Assembly (NCBI RefSeq): GCF_029626225.1
Contig: NZ_JARUBP010000001.1
Coordinates: 2,170,001 to 2,234,000 of the forward strand
Source of the DNA: Asanoa sp. WMMD1127
GTDB taxonomy: Bacteria > Actinomycetota > Actinomycetes > Mycobacteriales > Micromonosporaceae
Length of the DNA stretch: 64,000 bases
Direction: 5' to 3'
Shown: piece after piece, positions 6,378-64,000 of the stretch
Numbering within the stretch: position 1 is the stretch's first letter
Layout of the letters: each line of letters begins with the position of its first letter
Program-made: the position numbers and the translations under genes
The notes under the pieces: generated by a model
What the model was told of the DNA's origin: nothing
The model's database searches: none
The model's input: only the letters and a program-made list of their open reading frames with translations

Positions 6378-6584
6378 CGGGGACCTCCTGCGTCGTGCGC
6401 CCTCGGGCGCGGGTAACCACCAAACGACCCCGCGCTGCGTACGGTGACGCAACTGTCGGCGCGCCGACTTGACTCCACCCAATATCGACCCCCATAAGCC
6501 GATAAAGCGCTTCAAAAGGGACGCCACGATGTGATTACTGTGGCACCGGTCACCAAGGACGCCCCTTTGTGAGTCCTACTCGCA

Positions 6585-6614
6585 GGTAATAACCTGGGTT
6601 ACTGACGGGTAACC
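6585..6614. promoter_or_regulatory. Operator-like inverted repeats before the acyl-CoA dehydrogenase
   Basis: GGTTAC-TGACGG-GTAACC at 6597-6614 is a perfect 6-bp-arm inverted repeat, with a second short one, GGTAATAACC, directly before it (6585-6594). The ATG is 31 bp further on. The same arms and spacing recur at 62906-62923 and 62970-62987. The geometry is typical of TetR-family sites. Confidence 0.6.
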
Positions 6615-6644: not shown

Positions 6645-8486
6645 ATGACGCACTACAAGAGCAACCTGCGCGACATCGAGTTCAACCTCTTCGAGGTCTT
6701 CGGCGCCGGTCAGGTCCTCGGTCAGGCGCCGTTCGCCGACATCGACGCCGACACGGCCCGCAACTTCCTGGTCGAGCTCGACCGGTTCGCCCGCGAAGAC
6801 CTGGCGGCCAGCTACACCGACAGCGACCGCAACCCGCCGGTGTTCGACCCGGCCACCCACAGCGCGCCGCTGCCCGAGGCCTTCCGCCGCTCGTACCACC
6901 GCTTCATGGACGCCGAGTTCTGGCGCCTAGACCTGCCGACGGAGCTCGGCGGCACCTCCGCGCCGCGCGCCCTGTGGTGGTCGCTGGCCGAGCTGATCCT
7001 GGGCTCCAACGCGCCGATCTGGATGTACGCGTCCGGCCCGTCGTTCGCGACCACGCTGCACCGCGAGGGCACCGACCGGCAGAAGAAGTGGGCCGAGCTG
7101 TTCATCGAAAAGGGCTGGGCGTCGACCATGGTGCTCACCGAGCCCGACGCCGGCTCCGACGTGGGCGCCGGCCGCACCCGGGCCGTCCCGCAGCCCGACG
7201 GCTCGTGGCACATCGAGGGCGTCAAGCGGTTCATCACCTCCGGCGAGCACGACCTGAGCGAGAACATCGTCCACTACGTGCTGGCCCGCCCGGTCGGCGT
7301 CGAGGGCGTCGGCGGTCCGGGCACCAAGGGCCTGTCGCTGTTCGTCGTGCCGAAGTTCCACTTCGACGAGGAGACCGGTGAGCTCGGCGAGCGCAACGGC
7401 GTGTTCGCCACCAACGTCGAGCACAAGATGGGCATCAAGGTCTCCAACACCTGCGAGCTGACCTTCGGCGAGCACGGCGTCCCGGCCAAGGGCTGGCTGA
7501 TGGGCGACGTCCACGAGGGCATCCGGCAGATGTTCCTGATCATCGAGTACGCCCGGATGATGGTCGGCACCAAGGCCATCGCGACGTTGTCGACGGGCTA
7601 CCTCAACGCGCTGGACTACGCCAAGGAGCGCGTGCAGGGCGCCGACCTCCTGCGCCAGGCCGACAAGGCCGCGCCGCGGGTCACCATCGCGCACCACCCG
7701 GACGTACGCCGGTCGCTGATGCTGCAGAAGTCGTACGCCGAGGGCATGCGCGCTCTGGTGGTCTACACCGCGAGCTGGCAGGACAAGATCAAGCTGGCCG
7801 CGCACGCCGGCGACGCCGAGGCGGAGAAGCTGGCCAAGCGGGTCAACGACTTCCTGCTGCCGATCGTCAAGGGTCTCGGCTCGGAGCGGGCCTACGAGCT
7901 GCTCGGCTCGGAGTCCCTGCAGACCTTCGGCGGTTCGGGCTTCCTGCAGGACTACCCGCTGGAGCAGTACGTCCGCGACGCGAAGATCGACACCCTCTAC
8001 GAGGGCACGACCGCGATCCAGAGCCTCGACCTGGTGTTCCGCAAGATCGTCAAGGACCAGGGCGGCGCGCTGATGGCCGTGGCCGGCGAGATCCAGCAGT
8101 TCATCGAGTCCGAGGGCGGCAACGGCCAGCTCAAGGAGGAGCGGCTCGCGCTGGGCAAGGCGCTGGTCGAGGCCCAGACCATGCTGGGCGTGATGACCGG
8201 CTGGCTCGGCGAGGCGGCCACCGACCCGCGGGCGATCTACAAGATCGGCCTGTCGAGCCGGCGGTTCCTGCTCGCGGTCGGCGATCTGATCGTCGGCTGG
8301 CTCCTCCAGCGGCAGGCGGACGTGGCGCTGCGCAAGCTGGCCGAGGGCCCGGATGCCTTCTACACGGGCAAGGTCGCCGCCGCCCGGTTCTTCGCCCGCG
8401 AGGTGCTGCCCCGCCTCGGCGCCGACCGCCGCATCATCGAGAACACCACGCTCGACCTGATGGACCTCCCGGAGGAATCCTTCTAG
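6645..8486 (+). CDS. Acyl-CoA dehydrogenase, long form
   Basis: A 613-residue FAD flavoenzyme for the first step of fatty acid beta-oxidation. The N-terminal extension (residues 1-60), then the central flavin-binding segment with [10 protein letters not shown] and the ITSGEHD loop, then the helical C-domain with the catalytic glutamate in YEGTTAIQ. After that comes an extra C-terminal domain of about 140 residues, as in the long FadE class. It stands alone, 22 bp before a thioredoxin-NHL gene. Chain-length preference cannot be told. The operator-like repeat upstream suggests control by a lipid-responsive repressor. Confidence 0.93.
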
Positions 8487-33629: not shown

Positions 33630-33782
33630 GGACACCTCGCTCCGCATGGTCATGCGTCGATCTCGCCCAATGGTCGATCTTCCGCTGCCAGACCCCTCTG
33701 CGGCGCGACATTAACGGTTGCCGAGGACCGGCGGAAGGGGTCAAAGGTTAAGACCCGGGCACGATCGGCTGAGCGCGCTCAG

Positions 33783-35057
33783 TTACTTGGCAGTAGCGTC
33801 CGGTGTGTGTGGAGTTAACGTTCCTTCAGGGTCCGGCTGCGCCGGCACGGTGGGCAGATCGCCGGTCGCGAGCGCGGGGGCGGCGGCCGTCCGCCGCCGG
33901 ATGAGCGCCTTGAACCACTCGAAGTCCGGCACCCGGGCGATGACCGGGCCGACCACGACAGTGATCAACACGTACGCGGTCGCGAGCGCGCCGAGCTCCG
34001 GGACGATGCCGGGCGTGGCGACGGCCAGACCGGCGATGACGATCGAGAACTCGCCGCGCGGGGTCAGCGCGAAACCGGCCCGCCAGCGGCCGCGCACCGC
34101 GATGCCGGCGCGCCGCGCGGCCACGTACCCGGTGAGGGTCTTCGTCGCGATCGTGACCACCGCCAGCCCGATCGCGGGCAGCAGCACCGGCGGGATGTCG
34201 GCCGGGTCCGTCGTCAGCCCGAAGAACACGAAGAACACGGCGGCGAAGATGTCGCGCAGCGGCGAGAGCAGGCGGGTGGCGTGGTGCGCGACGGGCCCGG
34301 AGACCGCGATGCCGACCAGGAACGCGCCGACCGCGGCGGACACCTTGAGCTGCGCGGCCAGGCCGGCGACCAGCAGGGTCAAGCCGAAAACGCCGAGCAG
34401 CAGCGCTTCCGGGTCGCGCGCGGAGATGGCGTTGGAGATCCAGCCGCCGAACCGGATCGCCACGACGAGCACGATCGACACCGTGCCGACGGCGATGACC
34501 AGCGCGACACCGCCGCCCAGCAGCCCGGTGCCGGCCAGCAGCGCGGTCAGCAACGGCAGGTAGAGCGCCATCGCCAGGTCTTCCATGACGAGGACGGAGA
34601 GCACCACGGGCGTCTCCCGGTTGCCCAGCCGGCCGAGGTCGGCCAGCACCTTGGCGACCACGCCCGAGGAGGTCACCCAGGTGACGCCGGCGAGCACCAC
34701 CGCGGCGACCCAGCCCCAGCCGAGCAGCAGGGCGAACGCCGCGCCGGGCAGCGCGTTGAGCACCGCGTCGAGCAGTCCGACCGGCGCGGCCGCGCGAAGG
34801 TTGCCGACGAGCTCGTCGGCCGAATATTCCAGGCCGAGCAGCACGAGCAGGAGGATCACGCCGATCTCGGCGCCGACGGAGAAGAACTCCTCGCTGGCGT
34901 TGAGCGGCAGGAGCCCACCGTGGCCGAAGGCCAGGCCGGCGAGCAGGTAGAGCGGGATGGGCGAGATGCCGAACCGGCGGCTGAGCCGCCCGAGCAGGCC
35001 GAGGAGGAACATCAGCGCCCCGACCTCGATCAGGAGGACCGTCGTGCTCTCGTGCAT
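33783..35057 (-). CDS. CPA2-family K+(Na+)/H+ antiporter, KhtU-like
   Basis: A 424-residue integral membrane protein with about 12 segments. The Asp in VLSVLVMEDLAMALYLP is the conserved ion-binding acidic residue of the CPA2 family, and an SSG sits in the unwound-helix region (TWVTSSGVV). The cytosolic tail is short, lacking the regulatory RCK domains of KefB/C. A separate TrkA-C protein is encoded just upstream (7-bp gap), as in the KhtT-KhtU potassium/proton antiporter of Bacillus. It probably exports K+ at high pH or K+ load. Confidence 0.88.
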   Translation of the reverse strand: MHESTTVLLIEVGALMFLLGLLGRLSRRFGISPIPLYLLAGLAFGHGGLLPLNASEEFFSVGAEIGVILLLVLLGLEYSADELVGNLRAAAPVGLLDAVLNALPGAAFALLLGWGWVAAVVLAGVTWVTSSGVVAKVLADLGRLGNRETPVVLSVLVMEDLAMALYLPLLTALLAGTGLLGGGVALVIAVGTVSIVLVVAIRFGGWISNAISARDPEALLLGVFGLTLLVAGLAAQLKVSAAVGAFLVGIAVSGPVAHHATRLLSPLRDIFAAVFFVFFGLTTDPADIPPVLLPAIGLAVVTIATKTLTGYVAARRAGIAVRGRWRAGFALTPRGEFSIVIAGLAVATPGIVPELGALATAYVLITVVVGPVIARVPDFEWFKALIRRRTAAAPALATGDLPTVPAQPDPEGTLTPHTPDATAK

Positions 35058-61531: not shown

Positions 61532-62737
61532 CTAGCCGCGCGGTTTGCGGAGCAGGTCGCTGGTCGCGCTCAGCAGGAGCGCGAGCGCGGCGGCGCCCAA
61601 TGCGCTCCACATGACGCCGGTGAGGCTGTGCGGCGCGATGAACTCCGCCACCACGACCAGGGCGGCGATCGCGATCCAGACCGGCGCCGACGCCCATCTG
61701 GTCGCGGTGGCGACGCGGTCGTTGACCAGCACGAAGACGACGGCATAGAGGGCGCCGGTCGCCGCGAAGATCGGAGCGTAGCGGCCCAGGTGGGTGTAGT
61801 CCGCGCCGCCGGCCAGGGCGAACGCGAACCCGCCGGCCACCGCGGACGCCGCCACGAGGACGGCGCCGCATTTCGCCACTAGTAGGAGCGCCTTGCGCAG
61901 GGCGCGGCGACTGCCCTGCGCCAGCCGGGGCAGGGCGAGCACGGTGACCACCTGCGGGGCCCACAGAGCGCCCTTGGTGAGGACGGTGCCGACGGAGTAC
62001 GCCCCGGACGCGTCGGGCGTGAGCAGGTGCCGGGCGAGCAGGAGATCGGCGTACGAGGCGACCAGCATCGCCAGCGTCGCCGAGAACGCGGTAAGCACCT
62101 CGCGCGCCCGGATCGGATCGGCGACGTGCGGCTTTCGGCTGCGGCTGAGCACCCACAGCGCCGGCGGCACCAGCCAGGCCACGATCGCACCGGTGACCAG
62201 CGACGCGGTCAGGCCGGCGCCGGCGACCAGGCCGGCGATGAGACCGGCGTAGCGACCGACCGCGAGCACCGCCATGCCGGCCGCGAGCCGGAGGAAGCGC
62301 TGGTCGCCCTGCAGCTCGCCGAGCCAGCGGCCGGCCAGCACGGTGGGCACGGTGGCCAGCGCCGCCAGCAGCGTGTAAATGGCCGGCAGGTCGAAGAGCG
62401 GCACGAGTACGGGCGCCAGGATCAGCAGCGCGCCCCCGCCGACGACCGTGGTCGCGAGGCTGATCCCGGCCGTTCGGCCGGCCCCGTTGCGGGCCCGGTG
62501 CACCGCGATCGCGATCTGCAGGCCGAGGCCCGGCACCGAGGCGATCGCGGTCAGGCCGAGCACGGTGGCCAGCGCGCTCAGGTCGGCGCTGCTGAGCTGG
62601 CGGGCGCCGATGACCGGCACGAGGTAGCCGAGCGCGTTGGTCAGCGCGCCGGCGATGGCGACCGCCGCGCCGGCGGTGGCGATCCGCCGGCTGCGCGCTG
62701 AGGACTTGGTGGCCGGTTGGCGGGTCAGGGCAGACAT
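61532..62737 (-). CDS. Polysaccharide flippase-like membrane protein (MOP superfamily)
   Basis: A 401-residue protein with about 12 membrane segments, resembling Wzx/MurJ-type exporters: VIGARQLSSADLSALATVL near the start, GRWLGELQGDQRFLRLA after segment four, and SYADLLLARHLL with ASGAYSVGTVL in the middle. It should move a lipid-linked glycan across the membrane. No glycosyltransferase is adjacent in the window. ATG at 62737; ribosome site weak. Confidence 0.83.
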   Translation of the reverse strand: MSALTRQPATKSSARSRRIATAGAAVAIAGALTNALGYLVPVIGARQLSSADLSALATVLGLTAIASVPGLGLQIAIAVHRARNGAGRTAGISLATTVVGGGALLILAPVLVPLFDLPAIYTLLAALATVPTVLAGRWLGELQGDQRFLRLAAGMAVLAVGRYAGLIAGLVAGAGLTASLVTGAIVAWLVPPALWVLSRSRKPHVADPIRAREVLTAFSATLAMLVASYADLLLARHLLTPDASGAYSVGTVLTKGALWAPQVVTVLALPRLAQGSRRALRKALLLVAKCGAVLVAASAVAGGFAFALAGGADYTHLGRYAPIFAATGALYAVVFVLVNDRVATATRWASAPVWIAIAALVVVAEFIAPHSLTGVMWSALGAAALALLLSATSDLLRKPRG

Positions 62738-62905: not shown

Positions 62906-62987
62906 GGTTACCGCACGGTAACCGGCATCTTGTGACCTCGGTCGCACGGGAGCACCATCGGTCCGTTCCGGTTACCAGCGAGTAACA
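62906..62987. promoter_or_regulatory. Two operator-like inverted repeats before the DUF6230 gene
   Basis: GGTTAC-CGCACG-GTAACC (62906-62923) and GGTTAC-CAGCGA-GTAACA (62970-62987), centres 64 bp apart, the second 15 bp before the GTG. Arms and 6-base spacing equal the site at 6597-6614. Two sites suggest cooperative repression or control of both divergent promoters. The rest of the 265-bp gap holds no gene I can support. Confidence 0.65.
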
Positions 62988-63002: not shown

Positions 63003-63632
63003 GTGTCGGAACCCCATCACATCGTGCGGGGCAGGACCCGCTGGCGGCGGTTCGCCGCACTCACCCTGCCGGCCGTCGCGGCCGCCGGGTTCATCGTCTT
63101 CGGCATGGCCAACGGCGCCATCGCCGCGTCGTTCGCCGTCTCCGGCCAGACCTTCAAGGTCTCGGCGGATCGGCTGGTGGGCAACGGCTTCGTCCAGTAC
63201 GGCAGCGTCGCCAGGGACGCCGAGGGCAACGACCACCCGGTGGCGGTGTCGGGCATCAACCGCGCGACGCTGACCAACCTGTGCCAGTCGGTGAAGGTGC
63301 CCGGCATGCCGGTCGTGCTGACCATCAACGCCGGCGGCAACGGCAAGCCCGCGACCGCCGTCAACATGCTCATCGACATGACCGAGCTGCGCGGCGACGC
63401 CACGTTCACCAACATCGAGATCGGCCGCGACGCCGGCACGTTGAACAAGGCCAACTCGAAGGGCCAGCCGGGTTCGTTCGGACAGCAGGCCGACAAGGTC
63501 GTCATCAACAACCTGAAGCAGGTCGCCTGGTCGACCTCGGCTGGCACGTTCACGCTCAACGGCCTGCGCATGAAGGTCAACGTTGGCGCCGACGCCAAGG
63601 AATGTTTCGAGGATGAGCAGCAGCAGCCGTAG
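63003..63632 (+). CDS. DUF6230 family secreted/membrane protein
   Basis: A 209-residue protein. Basic N-terminus (RGRTRWRRF), one hydrophobic segment (ALTLPAVAAAGFIVFGMANG) and then ASFAVSGQTFKVSADRLVGNGF, the typical DUF6230 start, with a beta-rich external domain containing two cysteines (LCQS, KECFE). GTG at 63003 has GAGGAGG 4-5 bases upstream. It overlaps the DUF6114 gene by 20 bases. Both families are known only by sequence; they almost always occur together in actinobacteria, to my knowledge. Confidence 0.88.
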   Translation: MSEPHHIVRGRTRWRRFAALTLPAVAAAGFIVFGMANGAIAASFAVSGQTFKVSADRLVGNGFVQYGSVARDAEGNDHPVAVSGINRATLTNLCQSVKVPGMPVVLTINAGGNGKPATAVNMLIDMTELRGDATFTNIEIGRDAGTLNKANSKGQPGSFGQQADKVVINNLKQVAWSTSAGTFTLNGLRMKVNVGADAKECFEDEQQQP

Positions 63633-64000
63633 CGCCACCCAGGTCCGGCCCGGTTTCGCGGGCCGGACCTGGCAAGGCTTCCGTCGCTGGCGGCGCACCC
63701 GCCCCTTCTGGGGCGGACTGTTCCTGATCGCCGGCGGCGTGGAGATCTTCCTGACCACGCAGATGAGCCTCAACGGCCTGAGCTTCCAACTCGGCCCGAC
63801 GGGCTTCCTGTCGTGGCTGATCCCCGCGATCCTGGTCACCTGCGGCGCCCTGGCCTGGGCGAGCCCCCACCAACGCATGTTCTACGCGATCGTCGGCGCG
63901 GTCTCGGCCGTGTTCTCGCTGATCGGCGTCAACCTGGGCGGCTTCTTTCTCGGCCTGCTCCTCGGCATCGTCGGCGCCGGCCTGGTCTTCGCCTGGACGC
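63613..64000 (+). CDS. DUF6114 family membrane protein (3' end cut by window edge)
   Basis: The first 129 residues. After a basic start (FRRWRRTRPFWGGLFLIAGGVEI) there are membrane segments at about residues 33-50, 63-80, 89-108 and 112-127, matching DUF6114. The start ATG at 63613 lies inside the end of the DUF6230 gene, so it is translationally coupled. The remaining part, often a charged, disordered tail, is outside the window. Function unknown. Confidence 0.87.
   Translation, partial: MSSSSRSATQVRPGFAGRTWQGFRRWRRTRPFWGGLFLIAGGVEIFLTTQMSLNGLSFQLGPTGFLSWLIPAILVTCGALAWASPHQRMFYAIVGAVSAVFSLIGVNLGGFFLGLLLGIVGAGLVFAWT

What the first reader, a model, noticed from the sequence alone, without database searches (positions are those of the whole stretch)
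6597..6614. Same inverted repeat controls an acyl-CoA dehydrogenase and a DUF6230-DUF6114 pair 56 kb away
GGTTAC-N6-GTAACC occurs at 6597-6614, 31 bp before the acyl-CoA dehydrogenase, and at 62906-62923, with a one-base variant at 62970-62987, before the DUF6230 gene. By eye I found no other full copy in the window. All three copies are intergenic and close upstream of a start codon. The geometry fits a TetR-type lipid-responsive repressor, so the uncharacterised DUF6230/DUF6114 proteins may belong to fatty-acid or membrane-lipid metabolism.
Basis: partly seen in the sequence, partly recalled or inferred. Interest (0 to 1): 0.72.

Follow-up and report, generated by a model that had tools for sequence, protein, structure and literature searches.

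The report
Shared fatty-acid switch includes DUF6230 genes
The repeated DNA word is very probably the landing site of fat-sensing regulator proteins that control fat breakdown in soil actinobacteria, and the uncharacterised DUF6230/DUF6114 gene pair appears to belong to the same switch, which gives these unknown proteins a first testable role.

Summary
GGTTAC-N6-GTAACC lies at 6597-6614 (acyl-CoA dehydrogenase, FadE) and 62906-62923, with a one-base variant at 62970-62987 (DUF6230); a weaker copy at 6574-6591 was missed. Genome-wide, 13 of 17 places within one mismatch of GTTACYN4RGTAAC are intergenic. In 61 family genomes GTTACYN4RGTARC gives 598 strand hits against 78 for the reversed pattern.

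The site recurs before FadE orthologues in 22 of 30 class-level loci (reversed 0) and before DUF6230 in 42 of 47 non-Streptomyces loci. Streptomyces DUF6230 genes carry degenerate or more distant copies. Other neighbours include thiolases, acyl-CoA dehydrogenases, ETF and an EtfD-like oxidoreductase.

Best reader: the orthologue of FdmR (Rv0238), a long-chain acyl-CoA-responsive TetR repressor of mycobacterial fatty-acid degradation, whose own promoter carries copies. But 19 of 61 family genomes lack FdmR and keep the sites. FasR, whose crystallised DNA has the same TAC-N6-GTA core, is the likely second reader.

The kind of regulon is known in mycobacteria; new are its reach and the placing of DUF6230-DUF6114 in it. 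Binding, ligand response and protein function are untested.

The parts
6574..6591 (.). weaker second operator copy before FadE (TCCTACTCGCAGGTAATA)
   Evidence: weight-matrix score 12.1; 23 bp from the main copy; tandem copies at similar spacing before FadE orthologues
6597..6614 (.). operator before FadE (GGTTACTGACGGGTAACC)
   Evidence: FadE orthologues 22 of 30 within 1 mismatch, reversed 0 of 30
6645..8486 (+). acyl-CoA dehydrogenase, 613 aa; FadE5-like (name recalled)
   Evidence: Pfam PF02770, PF00441, PF12806; 48 of 60 class genomes have a match at E<=1e-150
62906..62923 (.). distal operator before DUF6230 (GGTTACCGCACGGTAACC)
62970..62987 (.). proximal operator before DUF6230 (GGTTACCAGCGAGTAACA)
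   Evidence: weight-matrix score 24.6
63003..63632 (+). DUF6230 protein, 209 aa, with an N-terminal hydrophobic segment (by eye) and two invariant cysteines (C94, C201)
   Evidence: PF19741 E=1.4e-56; invariant columns in 39 aligned sequences
63613..64000 (+). DUF6114 protein; in-frame ATG at 63613 (start chosen by eye) overlaps the end of DUF6230 by 20 bases; runs beyond the window to about 600 aa, with an extra C-terminal domain
   Evidence: PF19609 E=9.9e-35 for the part in the window, 4.3e-33 for the longer protein; sequence

Best explanation
The repeat is the operator (core TAC-Y-N4-R-GTA, consensus GTTACYNNNNRGTARC) of acyl-CoA-sensing TetR regulators that control fatty-acid beta-oxidation in actinobacteria. 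In this genome (genus Asanoa by inference) the main reader is most likely the FdmR (Rv0238) orthologue at G000:C1:1830246-1830893, outside the window, with the FasR (Rv3208) orthologue as a probable second reader. Proposed mechanism (inferred): with little long-chain acyl-CoA the TetR dimer sits on the palindromes, which in this genome lie 15-79 bases before the start codons, and blocks transcription; rising acyl-CoA releases it and induces FadE, thiolases, other beta-oxidation genes and the DUF6230-DUF6114 pair together. Shown by sequence: the sites, their conservation, the genes beside them, and orthology and synteny of the TetR. Inferred: binding, repression, ligand, co-transcription. DUF6230 (membrane-anchored or exported) and DUF6114 (membrane protein), both judged by eye, would act at the envelope when fatty acids are being used; that role is a guess.
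For: Genome: 40 versus 15 reversed; 13 of 17 intergenic. Neighbours: FadE, an EtfD-like CCG/Fer4 protein, an acyl-CoA dehydrogenase, two thiolases, an SDR; at two mismatches a divergent thiolase/SDR pair (FadA2/FabG4-like, names recalled) and the TetR/SCP2-acyl-CoA dehydrogenase divergent region. Family: 598 versus 78 strand hits in 61 genomes, 56 of 61 genomes above their own control. FadE class-wide 22 of 30, reversed 0 of 30, including perfect sites in two f2 genomes (L247, L251). DUF6230: 24 of 30, reversed 0; 42 of 47 non-Streptomyces loci, reversed 0 of 80 and a downstream control stretch 0 of 80; site columns 1.88 bits against 0.26 and 0.40 in the flanks, 42 loci; the gene upstream is on the same strand in 23 of 42 loci with a site, so it cannot be a divergent target there. 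Regulator: of 100 TetR-domain matches listed, only this one has a listed site in its promoter; promoters of its family orthologues have GTTACN6GTAAC within 1 mismatch in 24 of 30 and at 2 mismatches in the other 6, reversed 0; SCP2 and an acyl-CoA dehydrogenase lie beside it in 30 of 30 family loci, an HtdX-like gene in 3 of 3 f4 loci and 2 of 4 f2 loci. Passages: 'FdmR (Rv0238)', long-chain acyl-CoA-responsive repressor of fatty-acid degradation (PMC12403877); key regulator of fadE5 (PMC9262360). FasR: an orthologue in this genome (L390, 89% to L266); its crystal oligo holds TACCCGTACGTA and AACTCGCCAGTA.
Against: 19 of 61 family genomes have no FdmR match at E<=1e-25 yet keep the operators (mean 8.3 hits against 1.1 reversed; with FdmR 10.5 against 1.4; difference in hits p 0.09), so FdmR cannot be the only reader. 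In this genome the TetR's own promoter site has two mismatches and a matrix score of only 8.2. No binding, expression or ligand data. The published FdmR motif could not be read. Of the 13 intergenic places several adjoin genes with no clear lipid role (EAL/GGDEF protein, ricin lectin, a 120-aa ORF), and in six FdmR-less genomes only 24 of 53 places stand before beta-oxidation genes by my reading. Streptomyces: 0 of 33 within 1 mismatch; copies degenerate or roughly 350-380 bp from the start codon. DUF6230 of f81, f78, f2, f72, f59, f5: 0 of 8 above the 95% null; f63 4 of 16 above the 99% null. The matrix was trained on FadE and DUF6230 sites.
Confidence: 0.8

Rival explanations
1. FasR, not FdmR, is the main reader of these operators in Micromonosporaceae; FdmR controls only its own neighbourhood.
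For: FasR-like TetRs form one clade of 16 rows from 16 of the 19 FdmR-less genomes; of the other three, the loci of G031 and G036 were left out of the tree because my translation was out of frame, and the G054 rows fall elsewhere. One member tested, L266, matches the FasR structures 6o6p and 6o6n at E about 1e-52. This genome has an orthologue (L390). TetRs on the FasR side of the tree in distant actinobacteria have perfect sites in their own promoters (L096, L099, L100), and L100's best structure match is FasR, 2.9e-28. The FasR-DNA oligo carries the same core.
Against: None of the 16 FasR-clade promoters in the family has a site within 1 mismatch of GTTACN6GTAAC (two have one at 2 mismatches), whereas FdmR promoters do in 24 of 30. 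FasR is an activator of fas-acpS in M. tuberculosis (passage), a different role. In mycobacteria fadE5 is a reported FdmR target (passage).
Confidence: 0.25
2. The sites before DUF6230 serve another gene or another regulator that happens to share the motif, and DUF6230 has nothing to do with fatty acids.
For: In the window a gene that looks like a flippase by eye starts divergently at 62737, 168 bases from the distal site. In some Streptomyces a MerR-like gene lies directly upstream of DUF6230.
Against: DUF6230 is the constant neighbour; the upstream genes vary and are co-oriented in 23 of 42 loci with a site. The same consensus stands before FadE and thiolases in the same family.
Confidence: 0.08
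3. Chance recurrence of a short palindrome.
For: The window match at 33782-33797 and some genome hits do look like chance.
Against: 598 versus 78 across 61 genomes; reversed controls 0 of 30, 0 of 30 and 0 of 80.
Confidence: 0.01

Closest known systems
FdmR (Rv0238) regulon of mycobacteria, Dong et al. 2021 PNAS (paper not held; known here from passages in PMC12403877 and PMC9262360, and from recall)
   Same: Orthologous TetR by tree and synteny; a fadE5-type target with perfect operators in two f2 genomes (L247, L251; f2 is probably Mycobacteriaceae, inferred); fatty-acid degradation genes.
   Different: Here the reach extends to Micromonosporaceae and Streptomyces; DUF6230-DUF6114 is a predicted target; the TetR is divergent to SCP2 and an acyl-CoA dehydrogenase; some genera keep the operators without FdmR.
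FasR (Rv3208) and its fas-acpS operator (PMC7382501, passages seen)
   Same: TAC-N6-GTA core; long-chain acyl-CoA-sensing TetR; an orthologue in this genome.
   Different: FasR activates fas-acpS in M. tuberculosis; here the sites stand before degradation genes.
TetR regulators FadR, PsrA, KstR (recalled)
   Same: Lipid-responsive TetR logic.
   Different: Different operators (recalled, not tested).

Membership tests
FdmR regulon | Orthologous FdmR/Rv0238 TetR present | tested here: met
   P0001 groups with the f2 and f4 rows at 100/99; HtdX-like synteny in 3 of 3 f4 and 2 of 4 f2 loci; Rv0238 = FdmR from PMC12403877. The gene order around Rv0238 is recalled, and no named mycobacterial genome was compared.
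FdmR regulon | fadE5-type gene carries the operator | tested here: met
   Window 6597-6614; 22 of 30 class loci
FdmR regulon | Operator identical with the published FdmR motif | not tested
   Paper not held
FdmR regulon | FdmR present wherever the operators are | tested here: not met
   19 of 61 family genomes lack it and most keep sites
FdmR regulon | Repression relieved by long-chain acyl-CoA | not testable with these tools
   Needs binding and expression assays
FasR operator | Match to the crystallised FasR DNA | tested here: met
   Exact TACN6GTA plus a second within 1 mismatch in the 25-mer; 0.00025 of 20,000 base shuffles do as well. The two are each one mismatch from TACYN4RGTA. The 12-mer AACTCGCCAGTA is exact in 5 of 33 and within 1 mismatch in 13 of 33 Streptomyces DUF6230 upstream regions.
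FasR operator | fas-acpS (FAS-I) target | not tested
   No search for FAS-I was made
TetR-type operator in general | Palindrome in the promoters of targets and of the regulator itself | tested here: met
   in this genome the regulator's copies are imperfect (two mismatches)

The most novel reading that the evidence does not exclude
DUF6230-DUF6114 is an envelope system for handling fatty acids or lipids, switched by two acyl-CoA-sensing TetR paralogues (FdmR and FasR) that share or compete for one operator across actinobacteria, so that FdmR can be lost while the regulon persists.
Probability: 0.4. Interest if true: 0.72.

Novelty: new member of a known kind. Interest (0 to 1): 0.56.

Why it matters
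It gives two families of unknown function a first testable context (induction by long-chain acyl-CoA), extends a mycobacterial fatty-acid regulon to Micromonosporaceae and Streptomyces, and raises the question of how FasR and FdmR share one operator. In the paper library, 'DUF6230' occurs in one paper, as a line in a promoter table, and 'DUF6114' in none; strings of the motif gave no paper.

Tried and rejected
Literal motif strings in the papers gave nothing. Rv0158 was considered and dropped: its reported motif is YGGCGGBGMCGGCGG (passage of PMC10501769). The TetR motif logos of PMC4482099 are figures, not held (passages). PDB profile search with DUF6230: two hits at E about 0.26, no lead. 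Profile comparison of DUF6230 with the DUF6114 C-terminal domain: probability 0.2%, no relation. Sigma-70 scans of both promoters: 0 found. A paper search with the old name 'cholesterol esterase' gave no lead in its listing, nor did. Among the 30 TetR loci nearest to FdmR in FdmR-less genomes, one (L261, not in the FasR clade) has a site within 1 mismatch of GTTACN6GTAAC; in three of the 30 (L270, L271, L281) the frame or start was misplaced, so their promoters were not properly tested. The idea that the DUF6230 site serves a divergent gene was set aside because the neighbours change. Mistakes of mine: the FdmR reference was out of frame; it was repeated in frame (no FdmR hit among the genes); the other references of those calls stand.

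Full report
Observation. All three are intergenic, 30, 79 and 15 bases from the start codons. The proteins are an acyl-CoA dehydrogenase with a PF12806 C-terminal domain, DUF6230 and DUF6114. A weaker fourth copy at 6574-6591 lies 23 bp before the FadE site.

Genome. The window is G000:C1:2170001-2234000 of a 7.97-Mb genome. A same-genus genome, G017, has a contig of 77,210 bases with DUF6230 at the coordinates of Asanoa siamensis NZ_BONE01000042.1, so the genus is Asanoa by inference. GTTACN6GTAAC with up to 1 mismatch occurs at 40 places against 15 for the reversed pattern. The 17 places within 1 mismatch of GTTACYN4RGTAAC were all read: 13 intergenic, 4 in predicted genes, of which 3 overlap 3' ends. 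With 18.5% predicted non-coding sequence in the own-genome stretches read, p is about 3e-7; those stretches were chosen around sites. Neighbours of the 13 by Pfam: FadE; DUF6230 (two places); a CCG/Fer4 oxidoreductase resembling EtfD (name recalled); an acyl-CoA dehydrogenase (divergent to a UDP-glucose dehydrogenase); two thiolases; an SDR; a GMC oxidoreductase; and, without clear lipid role, a ricin-lectin protein, an EAL/GGDEF protein, a 120-aa ORF behind EccB and an epoxide-hydrolase-like gene whose 3' end faces the site. With two mismatches come a divergent thiolase/SDR pair (FadA2/FabG4-like) and the TetR/SCP2-acyl-CoA dehydrogenase divergent region.

Conservation. In 61 family genomes the exact pattern GTTACYN4RGTARC gives 598 strand hits (a full palindrome counts on both strands) against 78 reversed; 56 genomes exceed their own control, 3 tie. 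FadE: 48 of 60 class genomes have a match; 30 loci of 51 matches were examined and 22 carry a site within 1 mismatch, reversed 0; 13 of 21 spacings between neighbouring sites are 24 or 25 bp. DUF6230: 35 of 61 family genomes have it, 46 genes; 30 loci, one a genome, were examined and 24 have a site, reversed 0. Of 80 loci kept from 363 in genome contigs, 33 are Streptomyces and 47 are not (45 titled with genera that I recall as Micromonosporaceae, 2 MAGs titled only Actinobacteria bacterium); 42 of the 47 and 0 of the 33 have a site within 1 mismatch, reversed 0 of 80, a downstream stretch 0 of 80. These draws overlap in species. The site columns are conserved (1.88 bits) and the flanks are not (0.26 and 0.40; 42 loci).

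Streptomyces and beyond. With a weight matrix from 99 FadE and non-Streptomyces DUF6230 sites, 32 of 33 Streptomyces DUF6230 upstream regions exceed the 95% level of dinucleotide shuffles; the commonest form is TTCAACTCGCCRGTAACA, which in several lies directly after a TTGCCA/TACATT promoter-like sequence (the promoter reading is by eye). In a class draw 55 of 246 genomes have DUF6230; 49 of the 52 outside the family were examined (base shuffles as null): 21 of 22 of family f4 (Streptomycetaceae by inference) exceed the 99% level, 19 of them with a perfect GTTACN6GTAAC roughly 350-380 bp before the start codon (start placed by eye in two loci). In f63, 10 of 16 pass 95% and 4 pass 99%; f65 2 of 2 and f54 1 of 1 pass 99%; f81, f78, f2, f72, f59 and f5 together 0 of 8 pass 95%. 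So DUF6230 appears to be in the regulon in some families and not in others.

Regulator. Among 100 TetR_N matches listed for this genome (150 of 293 candidates were scored), only one, P0001 at 1830246-1830893, has a listed site in its promoter (the list of two-mismatch places was printed only in part). That site, GTTACTGCGGAGTAGG, has two mismatches and a low matrix score, 8.2. Promoters of its family orthologues show GTTACN6GTAAC within 1 mismatch in 24 of 30 (30 of the 43 matches) and at 2 mismatches in the other 6, reversed 0. It stands beside SCP2 and an acyl-CoA dehydrogenase in 30 of 30 family loci, beside an HtdX-like gene in 3 of 3 f4 and 2 of 4 f2 loci, and in 4 of 4 f2 loci beside an LpqI-like gene (reference taken from one of them; names recalled). 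It groups with the f2 and f4 proteins at 100/99. That is the neighbourhood of Rv0238 as I recall it, and PMC12403877 equates Rv0238 with FdmR, a long-chain acyl-CoA-responsive repressor of fatty-acid degradation (passage). The FdmR paper itself is not held.

The difficulty. 19 of 61 family genomes have no match to P0001 at E<=1e-25 (best 4e-21 to 4e-16) and yet keep sites: mean 8.3 hits against 1.1 reversed, and 10.5 against 1.4 where FdmR is present, a difference with p 0.09. In six of these genomes 53 places were listed; 51 were read and the other two lie before DUF6230 genes by coordinates. By my reading 24 of the 53 stand before beta-oxidation genes: FadE in 5 of 6 genomes, the L042-type thiolase in 6 of 6, EtfB in 5 of 6 (one Pfam-tested), EtfD-like in 2, an acyl-CoA dehydrogenase in 4, an enoyl-CoA hydratase in 2 (one Pfam-tested). 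Others stand before GDSL or secretory lipases and alpha/beta hydrolases, and many before genes with no evident lipid role. So another reader exists. In 16 of the 19 genomes a near relative of FdmR is a FasR-like TetR; one, L266, matches the FasR structures 6o6p and 6o6n at E about 1e-52 (PMC7382501 deposits 6O6N, 6O6O and 6O6P). This genome has one too (L390, 89%, found among the 40 TetR stretches fetched of the 100 listed). The DNA crystallised with M. tuberculosis FasR holds TACCCGTACGTA and AACTCGCCAGTA: TACN6GTA exactly once and once with one mismatch, as 0.00025 of shuffles do. Distant TetRs on the FasR side of the tree carry perfect sites in their own promoters (L096, L099, L100), though the FasR promoters of this family do not. 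I therefore read the operator as shared by FdmR and FasR. FdmR presence goes with DUF6230 presence (31 of 35 against 11 of 26 genomes, Fisher p 0.0002), not corrected for kinship or genome size.

DUF6230 and DUF6114. The genes overlap by 20 bases if DUF6114 starts at the ATG 63613. DUF6230 has an N-terminal hydrophobic segment (by eye) and two invariant cysteines in 39 aligned sequences. DUF6114 looks like a small multi-span protein (by eye); in the Micromonosporaceae read it carries a linker and a conserved C-terminal domain of about 170 aa (12 aligned) that the shorter Streptomyces proteins lack, and some Streptomyces have a third gene with a secreted look instead (L172, L181; no Pfam match for L172). 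No fold could be assigned.

Verdict. A real, conserved operator of a known kind of regulon, with a well supported new member pair. The interest lies in the handle on two unknown families and in the two-reader question.

Noticed in passing
window 33781-33798: AGTTACTTGGCAGTAGCG, a one-mismatch match to the 16-bp consensus overlapping the 3' end of a minus-strand gene (33783-35057); probably chance.
   Followed up: partly
L285-L309 (f4 genomes), about 490-530 bases before the DUF6230 Pfam match in 19 of 22: Perfect CGTTACTAGCGAGTAACG-type palindromes roughly 350-380 bp before the DUF6230 start codon, behind a gene that looks like a thioredoxin-domain protein; the distance is unusual for a repressor.
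   Followed up: partly
L172, L180, L181, L184, L191, L293: A MerR-like regulator gene (by eye) directly upstream of DUF6230 in several Streptomyces.
   Followed up: no
L357, L365: In two FdmR-less genomes of one genus the operator lies between a TetR-like gene and a secreted-looking S15-family hydrolase; a possible local regulator of the same specificity.
   Followed up: no
L338, L342, L343, L369, L383: Sites before alpha/beta hydrolase, GDSL and secretory-lipase genes in FdmR-less genomes: lipid acquisition may be part of the regulon.
   Followed up: partly
L048:6904-7410: Conserved C-terminal domain of the long Micromonosporaceae DUF6114 protein, without a significant Pfam match.
   Followed up: partly
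L041:3054-3069: Two-mismatch site before a cytochrome bd oxidase subunit I gene, with a divergent response regulator.
   Followed up: no
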